38,995 nucleotides of DNA from Actinomycetota bacterium (GTDB lineage: Bacteria; Actinomycetota; Acidimicrobiia; Acidimicrobiales; JAJPHE01). A model generated the notes under the pieces. It was not told where the DNA came from. It saw only the letters and a program-made list of their open reading frames with translations, and did not search any database. Made by a program: the position numbers and the translations under genes. Shown piece after piece: positions 31,443 to 36,647 of the stretch; position 1 is the stretch's first letter, and the number at the start of each line of letters is the position of its first letter. The stretch lies in contig DAHUYE010000072.1 of the NCBI GenBank assembly GCA_027315345.1, forward strand, positions 1 to 38,995, written 5' to 3'.

Positions 31443-31470
31443 ACGGGCCCAGACCCTGCCTTGTCCGCCC

Positions 31471-32859
31471 CTACCTGGTCAGCATGTCCTCGAGGCTGAA
31501 GCCGAGTGCTCCGGTGGCCAGGACCTCGGGTTCGACGCCCCTCCGACCCCATAAGGCGTATTGAACGTCCTCAGCCCGATGGGGAACGTGGACCGACTTG
31601 GCCGTGAGGTCCCGTAGGTCACGGAGGCCCAGCGGGCTGTCCTGCCAACGGGCCTCGCCCAGGAACTCGGTGCGAGAGCCGCGCATCCCCAGAACATCGA
31701 CCTCACACGGCGGACCCGACGAAGCCCACCAGCGCCCCACCAATAGGTCTTCCGGAAGGACACCGCTGGTTACGAGATGAGACGCGTGAGCGCGGGCCAT
31801 TCGCTCGAACAGCCACCCGAGGTGGCCCAGCCATTGCGGTTGCCGGCGGGTCAGCACGGCGGGGCCGTTCCCACCCGCCATCTGGGCCAGGTCTGAATAC
31901 AGGACCCTGAACCAGAAGGCCAGGTACACGTCGTCGATCTCGTACAGGGGACGGGCCCGCTTGGGAGCACCGAGGGGCAAGGAGCGACGGACCATTCCGG
32001 AGCGGACCAGCACATCCAGGGGGTGTTCGACGCGCTGATCGGCCTCGTTCTGGATCTCGGACATCCGAGTCCGGCCCCGGCCGATGGCCGCCAGGATCCG
32101 GGGATAGCCCCCGGTGTCGGGCAGTTCCTCGCCGAGGATCCCCTCGGCATCCTCGAGCAGGACGCCGCCGGGGGAACCGGCCAGGCCCAGCAGGTTGTCC
32201 CGCGTCGAGACAGCCTGGTCCCAGGCCTTCAAGTGCAATGGGTAACCCCCACAGGCGGCGTAGGCCTCGACCAGACTCACCGGGCTGAGGTCGGGCCAGA
32301 ACTCTGAAGCCTTCTCGATGCCGACCGGGTCAAGCCGCAGGGTCACGGTCGGACGGCCCCGGAGCGGCCCTTGGGCGCCGAGCATCGTCTCCATCGCCCC
32401 AACCGCCGACCCGGTGAGCACCAGCATCAGCCGGCTGTCCGCCGGAAGGTGGTCCCAGACGGCCTGCACCACGCTGGCAAAGCCCGGGGTCGAGCGGGCC
32501 AGGTACGGAACCTCGTCCAGGACCACCACCAGAGGCTCCGCTCGAGAGGCGGCGGCAAAGAACCGCAGGGCCGCCTCCCACCCGGCAAAGCGGCCACCGC
32601 TCATGTCCGCCAGCTCGGGCCCGCCATCCCGGGCCACGGCTTCCTGGAGGCGGGTCAGTTCGATGGCCTCGGCCTGCTGGGTGGCACCGAAGAAGATGGC
32701 CCGCTTACCGGCGACGAAATGCGACAGAAGAAAGGTCTTACCGGTCCGCCGCCGGCCCCAGACCACGACCAGCTGGGCTTGGCCGCCCTGCGCCCGTTCC
32801 CAGGCAGCATTGAGACGACCGGTCTCCAGCTCCCGGGAGAGCAAGGGAAGCAGGGTCAC
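31471..32859 (-). CDS. AAA+ ATPase with DUF234-like C-terminus
   Basis: 462 residues from GTG 32859. Walker A GRRRTGKT (35-42), Walker B LVVVLDEVPYL (~105-115), then a helical AAA lid and a winged-helix region (RMSEIQNEADQRVEHPLDVLVRSGMV, RARPLYEIDDVYLAFWFRVLY). The C-terminus (EVDVLGMRGSRTEFLGEARW) is the PD-(D/E)xK-like DUF234 part, with Arg for the usual Lys in ECKW. These ATPases occur in archaea and bacteria; their function is poorly known and many are near toxin-antitoxin-like loci. Start: GTG is preceded by TTGTAC-17-TACTAT and no Shine-Dalgarno sequence; an ATG at 32922 (GGAGAC four bases upstream) is the alternative, adding 21 residues that look like promoter DNA read as protein. Confidence 0.85.
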   Translation of the reverse strand: MTLLPLLSRELETGRLNAAWERAQGGQAQLVVVWGRRRTGKTFLLSHFVAGKRAIFFGATQQAEAIELTRLQEAVARDGGPELADMSGGRFAGWEAALRFFAAASRAEPLVVVLDEVPYLARSTPGFASVVQAVWDHLPADSRLMLVLTGSAVGAMETMLGAQGPLRGRPTVTLRLDPVGIEKASEFWPDLSPVSLVEAYAACGGYPLHLKAWDQAVSTRDNLLGLAGSPGGVLLEDAEGILGEELPDTGGYPRILAAIGRGRTRMSEIQNEADQRVEHPLDVLVRSGMVRRSLPLGAPKRARPLYEIDDVYLAFWFRVLYSDLAQMAGGNGPAVLTRRQPQWLGHLGWLFERMARAHASHLVTSGVLPEDLLVGRWWASSGPPCEVDVLGMRGSRTEFLGEARWQDSPLGLRDLRDLTAKSVHVPHRAEDVQYALWGRRGVEPEVLATGALGFSLEDMLTR

Positions 32860-32865
32860 CGTTGG

Positions 32866-32894
32866 ATAGTAACTACAAAGGCCTTGTAGTACAA
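32866..32894 (-). promoter_or_regulatory. Promoter of the ATPase gene
   Basis: Minus-strand TTGTAC (32894-32889), a spacer of exactly 17, TACTAT (32871-32866), then six bases to GTG 32859. A good housekeeping-type promoter whose expected transcription start is at the start codon. The first of two palindromes (32874-32888) fits exactly inside the spacer. Confidence 0.65.
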
Positions 32895-32904
32895 GGGCCT
32901 TGTA
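32874..32904. promoter_or_regulatory. Two tandem 15-bp palindromes (operator) between ATPase gene and cobQ
   Basis: TACAAAGGCCTTGTA (32874-32888) and TACAAGGGCCTTGTA (32890-32904) have TACAA arms and are 16 bases apart, so they lie near one face of the helix after about 1.5 turns. The first occupies the -35/-10 spacer of the ATPase promoter, the second covers its -35 box and leads into TATAGT on the plus strand. This is a strong repressor-site arrangement for two divergent promoters; the protein is unknown and is possibly the ATPase itself or a partner. Confidence 0.7.
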
Positions 32905-32947
32905 TAGTCGGAGGGTGAGCATGTCTCCGGGCGGGGTCGTTGAGTAG
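32903..32947 (+). promoter_or_regulatory. Plus-strand -10 box and short leader ORF before cobQ
   Basis: TATAGT (32903-32908) is six bases before GTG 32915 and 12 before ATG 32921. Upstream of the ATG is GGAGGG. From ATG 32921 a short frame runs MSPGGVVE and stops at TAG 32945-32947, overlapping the TTG start of cobQ in another frame. A leader peptide that couples to cobQ translation, or a relic of a former start, are the two readings. Confidence 0.45.
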
Positions 32948-34583
32948 CCGCCCCGGGGATCCACGCCCTGAGGCGCCGGAGGCCACCCATCTCTCCCCCG
33001 GCCTGCGGGGCGGGCTCATGGTGGTGGGAACCGCCAGCGACGTCGGCAAGTCCCAGATGGTGACCGGGCTCTGCCGGCTGCTCGCCCGGCGGGGGATCCG
33101 GGTGGCCCCGTTCAAGGCCCAGAACATGTCCAACAACTCCTTCGTAACGGAGTCGGGTCACGAGATTGGCCGGGCCCAGGGCGTGCAGGCCCTGGCCGGC
33201 GGGGCCGAGCCGGAAGTGGCCATGAACCCGATCCTGCTCAAGCCGACCGGGATCAAAGGCAGCCAGGTGGTCTTGAACGGCCGGCCCGTCGGGCACCTGG
33301 GCGCCCTCGAGTACCACCGGCGCAAGCCCGAGTTCGTGGGCCCGGTCACCGACGCCCTGGCCGACCTGCGCCGGCGTTACGACGTGGTGGTGGCCGAAGG
33401 CGCCGGCGGGGCGGCCGAGATCAACCTGTTGGACCGGGACATCGTCAACCTGTCGGTGGCGGTGCGGGCCGGCCTGCCCGCCGTGGTGGTGGGGGATATC
33501 GACCGGGGGGGTGTCTTCGCCGCTCTCTACGGAACGGTGGAGCTGCTGCCCCCGGAACAGCGGGCCACCGTGGCCGGCTTCATCATCAACAAGCTTCGGG
33601 GCGATCCGGCCTTCCTGACCGGCGCCGGCGCCCAGCTGGAAGCGCGCTGCGGGATCCCCACCCTCGGCGTGCTCCCCTGGCTCGATGACATCGCCCTCGA
33701 CGCCGAGGACTCCCTGGGCCTGGCCGGGCCCCGCCCCCGGCCGGCCGGCGCCGCCTCCGGCGCCCCCTCCGGCTCCGGCTCCGGTTCCGGCGAAGGGGAC
33801 CGCCTGGACGTGGCCGTCATCCGCTTCCCCGCCCTTTCCAACTTCACCGACTTCGACCCCCTCGGGCTGGAGCCGGCCGTAGGGGTTCGGATGGTCGATC
33901 ACCCCGGCGCCCTGGGCGGGCCCGACCTCATCGTCCTGCCCGGCACCAAGGCCACCGTGGCCGACCTGGACTGGCTCCGCTCGACCGGGCTGGCCGAGGC
34001 GGTGGTGCGGGCGGGCCGGGCCGGCAGCCTCATCCTCGGCATCTGCGGCGGATACCAGATGCTCGGCCAATCCATCCACGACGACGTCGAGTCCGGCCGG
34101 GGTCGAGTGCCGGGCCTGGGCCTCCTGGCGGTGGAGACGGTCTTCGAGACGGCGAAGGTGACCCGCCGGCGCCGGGGCGCCACTCGTACCTGGGCCGGGG
34201 ACCGGTCCGGAGCCGGCCCGGCGGCGGCCGGCTACCAGATCCACCACGGCCGCTGCCGTCCCGTAGCCGGCCCGGACGCCGGCCGGGCCTGGTTCGGGCT
34301 GGCTGACCGGTGGGGCACCGAGGACGAGGGCCTGGTCTCCCCGGACGGTGCGGTGCTGGGCACCAGCCTGCACGGCCTGTTCGAATCCGACGGCTTCCGG
34401 GCCGCCTTCCTCGACTACGTGGCCGGGCGGAGGGGGCGGGGGATTCCGGAGTCGACGGTCGATTTCGCCGAAGCCAGGGTGGCCCAGTGGGACCGGCTGG
34501 CCGACGCCATCGAGGAGCACATCGACCTGGCCGCCCTGGAGAGGATCATCCGCTCCGGCGCCCCGGCGGCCGAGACCACCTGA
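32940..34583 (+). CDS. cobQ: Cobyric acid synthase
   Basis: 547 residues from TTG 32940. Amidates cobyrinic a,c-diamide at four side chains with glutamine and ATP. N-terminal nucleotide domain: MVVGTASDVGKSQM (27-40), FKAQNMSNNSFVT, PILLKPTG, and VVAEGAGGAAEINL. GATase class I domain: Cys369 in ILGICGGYQML and His478 in TSLHGLFESDGF. Between them is a variable linker (PAGAASGAPSGSGSGSGEGD) that is longer than usual. Start is uncertain: ATG 33018 would remove 26 residues and begin at MVVGTAS, with a GGGGCGGG before it. The TTG start overlaps a short upstream frame. It is next to cobT in direction and lies after the ATPase gene, which breaks the cob block. Confidence 0.92.
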   Translation: MSSRPGDPRPEAPEATHLSPGLRGGLMVVGTASDVGKSQMVTGLCRLLARRGIRVAPFKAQNMSNNSFVTESGHEIGRAQGVQALAGGAEPEVAMNPILLKPTGIKGSQVVLNGRPVGHLGALEYHRRKPEFVGPVTDALADLRRRYDVVVAEGAGGAAEINLLDRDIVNLSVAVRAGLPAVVVGDIDRGGVFAALYGTVELLPPEQRATVAGFIINKLRGDPAFLTGAGAQLEARCGIPTLGVLPWLDDIALDAEDSLGLAGPRPRPAGAASGAPSGSGSGSGEGDRLDVAVIRFPALSNFTDFDPLGLEPAVGVRMVDHPGALGGPDLIVLPGTKATVADLDWLRSTGLAEAVVRAGRAGSLILGICGGYQMLGQSIHDDVESGRGRVPGLGLLAVETVFETAKVTRRRRGATRTWAGDRSGAGPAAAGYQIHHGRCRPVAGPDAGRAWFGLADRWGTEDEGLVSPDGAVLGTSLHGLFESDGFRAAFLDYVAGRRGRGIPESTVDFAEARVAQWDRLADAIEEHIDLAALERIIRSGAPAAETT

Positions 34584-36017: not shown

Positions 36018-36273
36018 GCAGCGGACCCAGATATCGCTGACCAGCGAGGAGCGCCGGGTCCTGGACGTGGTGGCGGCTCGGACGGGACGATCCATATCCG
36101 CCCTCATCCGGGACGCCGTCAACACCGTCTACGGAACCGAGCGCAGCGCCGAGGACGATCTGGCCGCCATGCGCCGGGCCTTCGGGTCCTGGCAGGAGCG
36201 CGACGTCGACGGACGGGACTGGGTGGACCAGCTTCGCTCCGGTTCTCGCCTGGGATCCCAACCCGGCTCGTGA
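36016..36273 (+). CDS. vapB: VapB-type ribbon-helix-helix antitoxin
   Basis: 85 residues. RTQISLTSEERRVLDVVAA is the strand-helix start of a ribbon-helix-helix domain and GRSISALIRDAVNTVYG its second helix; the acidic C-terminal half (EDDLAAMRRAFGSWQERDVDGRDWVDQLR) should neutralise the toxin. Start at ATG 36016 inside the palindrome. Overlaps the vapC start by four bases (GTGA). Confidence 0.88.
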   Translation: MQRTQISLTSEERRVLDVVAARTGRSISALIRDAVNTVYGTERSAEDDLAAMRRAFGSWQERDVDGRDWVDQLRSGSRLGSQPGS

Positions 36274-36647
36274 CCGCCCTGGTGGACACGTCAGTCCTGA
36301 TCGACTACCTCCGAGGAGACCCGAGGGCAGCGGCCGTGCTCGAAGGGGAGCGGGCCGCAGCCCCGCTCCACGCCAGCGAGATCACCCGCCTGGAGGTACT
36401 GGCCGGCATGCGACCGGTCGAGGAGGATGCCACCCGTGCCCTGCTGTCCACTCTGGTGTGGCACCCGCTCGACGCCGAGTTGGCCGAAAAGGCCGGACAA
36501 CTCGGCCGCCGCTGGCTTCCCAGCCACTCCGCCATCGATAGCGCCGACCTGGCCATAGCCGCCACGGCCGTCCATGCCCGGGCCCGGTTGCTGACCCGCA
36601 ACACCAAGCATTTTCCGATGTTCCCGGACCTGGAGGCGCCCTACTGA
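36270..36647 (+). CDS. vapC: VapC-type PIN-domain ribonuclease toxin
   Basis: 125 residues from GTG 36270. PIN catalytic acids visible: Asp6 in LVDTSVLIDYL, Glu42 in RLEVLAGMR, Asp90/Asp93 in AIDSADLAIAATA. C-terminal RNTKHFPMFPDLE is usual. Full length, so the pair appears functional. In other bacteria VapC cuts tRNA or rRNA and is held inactive by VapB. GTG overlaps the vapB stop. Confidence 0.92.
   Translation: MTALVDTSVLIDYLRGDPRAAAVLEGERAAAPLHASEITRLEVLAGMRPVEEDATRALLSTLVWHPLDAELAEKAGQLGRRWLPSHSAIDSADLAIAATAVHARARLLTRNTKHFPMFPDLEAPY

What the first reader, a model, noticed from the sequence alone, without database searches (positions are those of the whole stretch)
32866..32908. Tandem palindromic operators on divergent promoters inside the cobalamin block
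TACAA-x-GGCCTTGTA occurs twice, 16 bases apart. The first copy fills exactly the 17-base spacer of a TTGTAC/TACTAT promoter for the ATPase gene, and the second runs into a TATAGT box facing cobQ. An unnamed repressor could switch both the ATPase and cobQ. No regulator gene lies adjacent, so the ATPase with its winged-helix part is a candidate.
Basis: partly seen in the sequence, partly recalled or inferred. Interest (0 to 1): 0.7.

Follow-up and report, generated by a model that had tools for sequence, protein, structure and literature searches.

The report
Immunity-like ATPase carrying its own operator
The paired palindromes are not a cobalamin switch: they are a repeated DNA landing site that travels between distant bacteria with the neighbouring ATPase gene, a predicted single-gene anti-phage protein that probably binds the site to control its own production.

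Summary
TACAAAGGCCTTGTA (32874-32888) and TACAAGGGCCTTGTA (32890-32904) sit 16 bp apart in the promoter spacer of the ATPase gene, and TACAANNNNNTTGTA occurs nowhere else in the 3.84-Mb genome. The interpretation needs changing. Sister genomes have cobC and cobQ touching, with no ATPase and no motif, so gene and operator entered the cobalamin block together. ATPase homologues 55-66% identical, in Chloroflexota and other actinobacterial lineages and in non-cobalamin contexts, carry the same operator at their start codon. Its conserved element is TTGTA(G/C)TACAA repeated with an exact 16-bp period, overlapping the -10 box. In nine genomes (about 27 Mb), 29 of 30 matches to a two-unit pattern lie at this gene. 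Across 78 diverse homologues, inverted repeats are strongly enriched at -75..+15, with subfamily-specific sequences; the genome's second ATPase has a different private operator. The protein is a STAND/ORC-like ATPase with a winged helix and a PD-(D/E)XK-like DUF234 domain, matching PADLOC's unvalidated defence candidate PDC-S27. Best reading: the ATPase binds its own private operator and represses itself. Binding and repression are inferred. Control of cobQ or response to cobalamin is unsupported.

The parts
32884..32894 (.). Central full operator unit TTGTAGTACAA (dyad at 32889), identical or nearly so in homologues
   Evidence: exact 11/11 match; the unit recurs at 16-bp spacing in all eight clade members
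32868..32878 (-). ATPase-proximal half-unit (minus: TTGTAGTTACT), 16 bp from the central dyad, overlapping the -10 box
32900..32910 (+). Distal half-unit (TTGTATAGTCG; on the minus strand its TACAA half), 16 bp from the central dyad; contains TATAGT
32874..32888 (.). First-reader palindrome 1 (TACAAAGGCCTTGTA)
32890..32904 (.). First-reader palindrome 2 (TACAAGGGCCTTGTA)
32866..32871 (-). -10 box TACTAT of the ATPase; 6 nt before the GTG, implying a leaderless transcript
   Evidence: homologues have TANNNT about 6-10 nt before the start
32889..32894 (-). -35-like TTGTAC, 17 bp from the -10 box; weak by the E. coli consensus
31471..32859 (-). ATPase gene (GTG start at 32859): STAND/ORC-like ATPase_2 + winged helix + DUF234 PD-(D/E)XK-like domain; PDC-S27 homologue
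31936..32106 (-). Winged-helix region of the ATPase (aa 253-309): the proposed operator reader
   Evidence: HTH_IclR/MarR/ArsR matches at aa 249-297 of homologues; model has H-H-H-strand-wing-strand
31474..31914 (-). DUF234 / PD-(D/E)XK-like C-terminal domain (EVDVLG ... GEARW)
32903..32908 (+). TATAGT facing cobQ; fortuitous or compensating -10, not conserved
31449..33010 (.). Approximate extent of the DNA inserted between cobC and cobQ; CGGGC at both edges (31444-31448, 33011-33015) could be a 5-bp duplication, weak
   Evidence: (junctions in relatives)

Best explanation
The palindromes form the private operator of the adjacent ATPase gene. Shown by sequence: an array of TTGTASTACAA units with a 16-bp period lies across the core promoter and start of this ATPase in at least eight genomes of different phyla and contexts; it is essentially absent elsewhere in those genomes, and other subfamilies of the same ATPase have their own different arrays at the same place. 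Inferred: the ATPase itself, through its winged helix, binds the array cooperatively, covers the -35 to -10 region and represses its own leaderless promoter, so that a potentially toxic STAND ATPase/PD-(D/E)XK effector is kept low until an unknown trigger (for example phage or DNA damage) pulls it off the DNA. Gene and operator moved as a unit into the cobC-cobQ junction here; cobQ is a bystander or at most read from a weak promoter in the operator's far edge.
For: Operator conserved with the ATPase at 55-66% protein identity in L006-L009, L036-L038 while flanks are unrelated. TACAANNNNNTTGTA and the two-unit pattern occur only at this gene in the own genome and in 29 of 30 places over nine genomes. 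Relatives without the ATPase have cobC abutting cobQ and no motif. No cob genes near the other copies. Family-wide: best inverted repeat scores 8 or more in 51% of 74 homologues at -75..+15 against 4-12% in neighbouring bins, Wilcoxon p about 2e-7 or lower; 41 of 78 pass shuffle p<=0.05 where about 4 are expected. The paralogue in the same genome has a different, also unique operator. Winged helix supported by Pfam HTH matches at aa 249-297 in homologues and a model of mean pLDDT 92 with top matches 2qen (Z 22.3) and 2fna. All 36 members scanned match PADLOC PDC-S27.
Against: No binding or expression data. In the NLR-type STAND proteins that also match the model, the winged-helix domain is regulatory and, from general knowledge, not a DNA binder. 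About half of diverse homologues show no significant inverted repeat by the score used, including the 42-47% identical L010, L012-L014. Repression rather than activation rests only on the operator overlapping the core promoter.
Confidence: 0.72

Rival explanations
1. The ATPase binds its operator as a positive autoregulator: bound ATP-form STAND oligomers recruit or remodel RNA polymerase, as MalT- or IniR-type STAND regulators do at their targets.
For: STAND-type fold; IniR, a transcription-activating ATPase, is described as resembling SSO1545 in its ATPase domain; weak -35 hexamer.
Against: The array lies between and over the -35 and -10 boxes, where bound protein normally blocks polymerase; in several subfamilies it abuts or crosses the start codon.
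Confidence: 0.12
2. A separate host transcription factor binds the array.
For: Palindromic promoter sites are usually bound by dedicated regulators (general knowledge); the winged-helix domain of NLR-type STAND proteins, which match the model, need not bind DNA.
Against: The motif is private to this gene in each genome, follows the gene across phyla without any co-travelling regulator gene in L006-L009, and changes with ATPase subfamily.
Confidence: 0.06
3. A cobalamin-linked operator that switches both the ATPase and cobQ.
For: Location inside the cob block; TATAGT faces cobQ.
Against: cobQ orthologues in relatives lack it and most abut cobC; the operator elsewhere is never near cob genes; no cobalamin riboswitch in the window.
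Confidence: 0.03
4. The array is an end or target site of a mobile element; the ATPase would be a TnsC/TniB-like transposition protein.
For: Sporadic, horizontally mobile distribution; profile match to VchTnsC and weak TniB hits; possible CGGGC duplication at the insert edges.
Against: No copy of the unit at the other side of the gene in the window; empty sites in relatives lack the motif, so it is not a homing target; no transposase gene in the insert; the array position tracks the start codon.
Confidence: 0.05

Closest known systems
PDC-S27 (PADLOC candidate single-gene phage defence; ATPase + PD-(D/E)XK)
   Same: 36 of 36 family members scanned match the two PDC-S27 models; described as an ATPase fused to a PD-(D/E)XK-superfamily domain, with 4562 bacterial and 3503 archaeal occurrences (PMC12988326)
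   Different: The paper passages read say nothing of operators or regulation; defence activity is described there as experimentally unvalidated
SSO1545 (2fna) and PABY2304 (2qen), solved archaeal ATPases
   Same: ATPase plus winged-helix fold, Z 20.7 and 22.3 over about 293 residues; sequence-profile hits E 4.7e-15 and 1.6e-19
   Different: Their aligned range ends at model residue 320, so the DUF234 part is not covered; no operator known to me
Self-specific autorepressors such as plasmid RepA of repABC operons (PMC4492784)
   Same: An ATPase that represses its own operon through a private operator, different for each paralogue
   Different: RepA is a ParA-type partition protein; unrelated function
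Defence-island regulators (WYL-family regulators, PMC9122601; RptR, PMC12255303)
   Same: Dedicated transcriptional control keeps defence genes quiet
   Different: There the repressor is a separate protein; here the effector itself is the only candidate

Membership tests
PDC-S27 / ATPase_2-DUF234 ATPases | ATPase_2 (PF01637) domain with Walker motifs | tested here: met
   E 7.5e-12 above cut-off; invariant GRRRxGK and DE
PDC-S27 / ATPase_2-DUF234 ATPases | DUF234 (PF03008) C-terminal domain | tested here: met
   33.7 bits against cut-off 22.5
PDC-S27 / ATPase_2-DUF234 ATPases | Match to the PADLOC models | tested here: met
   E 5e-29 and 1.3e-10
PDC-S27 / ATPase_2-DUF234 ATPases | PD-(D/E)XK catalytic residues | tested here: inconclusive
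   EVDVLG...GEARW: D389 and E403 kept, the usual lysine is arginine (R405) in this clade; many homologues have GEAKW; nuclease activity untested
PDC-S27 / ATPase_2-DUF234 ATPases | Anti-phage activity | not testable with these tools
   candidate only; unvalidated in PMC12988326
STAND NTPases | P-loop ATPase followed by a winged-helix domain, fold like NLR/CED-4/ORC | tested here: met
   plant NLR Z 15-17, CED-4 about 14, ORC2 15.0; a shared fold shows no function
Autorepressor with private operator | Operator at the gene's own promoter, co-inherited and unique in the genome | tested here: met
Autorepressor with private operator | Protein binds operator and lowers transcription | not testable with these tools
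   needs gel shift and reporter assay

The most novel reading that the evidence does not exclude
A whole family of single-gene, NLR-like STAND immune ATPases carries its own subfamily-specific operator array. The array is both an off-switch and an assembly-counting platform: monomers parked in line at 16-bp steps repress the gene, and trigger-induced oligomerisation removes them, coupling effector activation to its own induction without a separate regulator.
Probability: 0.3. Interest if true: 0.8.

Novelty: new variant of a known kind. Interest (0 to 1): 0.6.

Why it matters
PDC-S27 genes number in the thousands in bacteria and archaea and have no known trigger or mechanism. A private operator at the gene's start gives each subfamily a readable DNA target, suggests that the effector is its own regulator, explains how a lone gene can move safely between phyla, and supplies an assay (operator occupancy or a reporter) with which its unknown trigger can be screened. 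It also supplies dozens of natural protein-operator pairs for decoding winged-helix specificity.

Tried and rejected
Cobalamin operator or riboswitch: no Rfam hit in the window, no motif at cobQ of relatives. Homing-nuclease target: empty sites lack the motif. Mobile-element end: no unit on the other side of the gene. RNA hairpin or terminator: one terminator-like hit on the minus strand within the array, but the inferred ATPase transcript starts downstream of it. First AlphaFold run with 5 sequences was unusable (mean pLDDT 53); adding viral-contig homologues fixed it. Phmmer of the single protein against the PDB found nothing; the profile did. Viral-contig scan with the single protein found none. 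Pairwise operator similarity fades below about 50% protein identity, so no universal motif exists. Loose 15-mer search TACAANNGCCTTGTA in 198 class genomes gave 3 single sites without the ATPase, chance-like. Papers found with DUF234, PF01637, COG1672, SSO1545 or PDC-S27 were seen only as search-list titles and abstract starts, apart from term look-ups in three of them; none of that mentioned such an operator; most subscription papers are not in the library, so absence there is weak.

Full report
Observation. The two 15-mers are present where stated, with starts 16 bp apart. TACAANNNNNTTGTA matches only these two places in the 3.84-Mb genome, with zero matches for the reversed pattern. On the minus strand TTGTAC - 17 bp - TACTAT precedes the ATPase. 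These hexamers are weak by the E. coli consensus (the scan reports none), but TACTAT lies 6 nt before the GTG at 32859, the spacing expected of a leaderless actinobacterial transcript (general knowledge; not measured here).

The cobalamin setting is incidental. cobQ orthologues were fetched from relatives, including two genomes of the same family. In five loci (L091, L092, L094, L095, L097) cobC lies directly before cobQ, abutting or overlapping; L093 does not show cobC but has no ATPase and no motif either. None has the ATPase or the palindrome. The ATPase and its promoter are therefore an insertion of about 1.56 kb into the cobC-cobQ junction of this genome. CGGGC occurs at both inferred edges and could be a target duplication, but a GC-rich 5-mer is weak evidence. 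No Rfam family is found in the window. The TATAGT facing cobQ has no good -35 and is followed at the expected +1 by GTG and a ten-codon frame; its use is unknown.

The operator belongs to the ATPase. A scan of 84,980 genomes with the protein gave homologues of 60-64% identity in a Chloroflexota bin, a Gaiella bin and two Solirubrobacterales bins; wider searches added 66%, 65%, 57% and 56% identical copies. Seven of these eight have readable DNA upstream, and all seven carry the same kind of operator; the eighth (L069) ends 12 bp above its start. None is near cob genes, and the neighbours differ in L006-L009. L038 has lost the first 63 residues but keeps the array. Aligning the operators shows what is conserved: TTGTA(G/C)TACAA with dyad symmetry, repeated with an exact 16-bp period, the copy nearest the gene merging into the -10 box. 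A two-unit pattern with up to 2 mismatches, searched in nine genomes (about 27 Mb), gave 30 matches, 29 of them at this gene; the one other is at the level of the reversed-pattern control, which gave 2.

The pattern is family-wide with private sequences. In 78 non-redundant homologues (26-100% identity) the best inverted repeat within -110..+40 averages 9.0 against 6.0 in other windows of the same loci and 5.5 in dinucleotide shuffles; 41 pass p<=0.05 and 24 beat all 100 shuffles. By position, scores of 8 or more occur in 51% at -75..+15 but 4-12% in neighbouring 90-bp bins, and 10 or more in 30% against 0-5%. The sequences differ by subfamily, for example GTTAGTAAC units, CCGACAT/GTAAC units, TAGCTATATTATA and TGCATGCAGGGC. 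They are shared only between proteins above about 50% identity: 38% of such pairs reach a local score of 10 in the operator region against 7% in flanks. The second ATPase of this genome (C89, 35% identical) has its own operator, also unique in the genome. Plasmid copies in Rhodothermus, Sinorhizobium and Mesorhizobium and several viral-contig copies show the same layout. About half of the homologues show nothing significant by this score.

The protein. It has Pfam ATPase_2 and DUF234. A 15-sequence alignment gave a model with mean pLDDT 91.9: an ATPase, then H253-261, H267-274, H279-287, strand, wing, strand, then a domain with the D389...E403-A-R405 arrangement of PD-(D/E)XK proteins, arginine replacing the usual lysine in this clade. 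Pfam HTH families (IclR, MarR, ArsR) match aa 249-297 of several homologues. The closest solved structures are 2qen (Z 22.3, rmsd 3.0, 295 aligned) and 2fna (Z 20.7), followed by plant NLRs, ORC2 and CED-4 at Z 14-17. All 36 members scanned match PADLOC's PDC-S27, described as an ATPase fused to a PD-(D/E)XK domain and not yet validated as defence (PMC12988326).

Mechanism. Shown: co-inheritance, uniqueness, promoter overlap, subfamily specificity. Inferred: the ATPase is the protein that reads the array, because it is the only gene that always accompanies it and it has a winged helix; the effect is repression, because the array covers the core promoter and sometimes the start codon. A 16-bp period is about one and a half helical turns, so neighbouring units face opposite sides, which would suit a chain of dimers. 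The main doubt is that winged-helix domains of NLR-type STAND proteins need not bind DNA.

Verdict. Self-regulation through a private operator is a known kind of control; its systematic presence across a large family of single-gene STAND/PD-(D/E)XK candidate defence proteins was not found in the passages and search lists read in the paper library, and is the interesting part.

Noticed in passing
G000:C89:14736-16092 (L029, L165): A second ATPase_2/DUF234 gene in the same genome, 35% identical, with a different private array (GTAACTTACGTGGATCGTGAGTTACG).
   Followed up: partly
32915-32947: The + strand TATAGT places +1 on a GTG that opens a ten-codon frame (MSMSPGGVVE) ending just inside the TTG start of the cobQ reading frame; possible leaderless leader peptide or chance.
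   Followed up: no
36270-36647: A lone PIN-domain gene (PF01850, E 6e-14) sits between cobT and a glutamine-synthetase-like gene.
   Followed up: no
L038 (G457:C189:2288-2326): A homologue that has lost its first 63 residues, Walker A included, up to an intact operator array; broken copy or assembly error.
   Followed up: no
L147 (NC_013502.1:22111-23535): Rhodothermus marinus plasmid copy lies downstream of a type III-A CRISPR csm5 gene, with the palindrome ATTATACTCCAGAGTATAATACTCTCGAGTATAAT abutting its ATG.
   Followed up: partly
L058, L061, L063 (start codon region): In one actinobacterial subfamily the palindrome (AACTTCGcc-ATG-gcGAAGTT type) spans the start codon itself.
   Followed up: no
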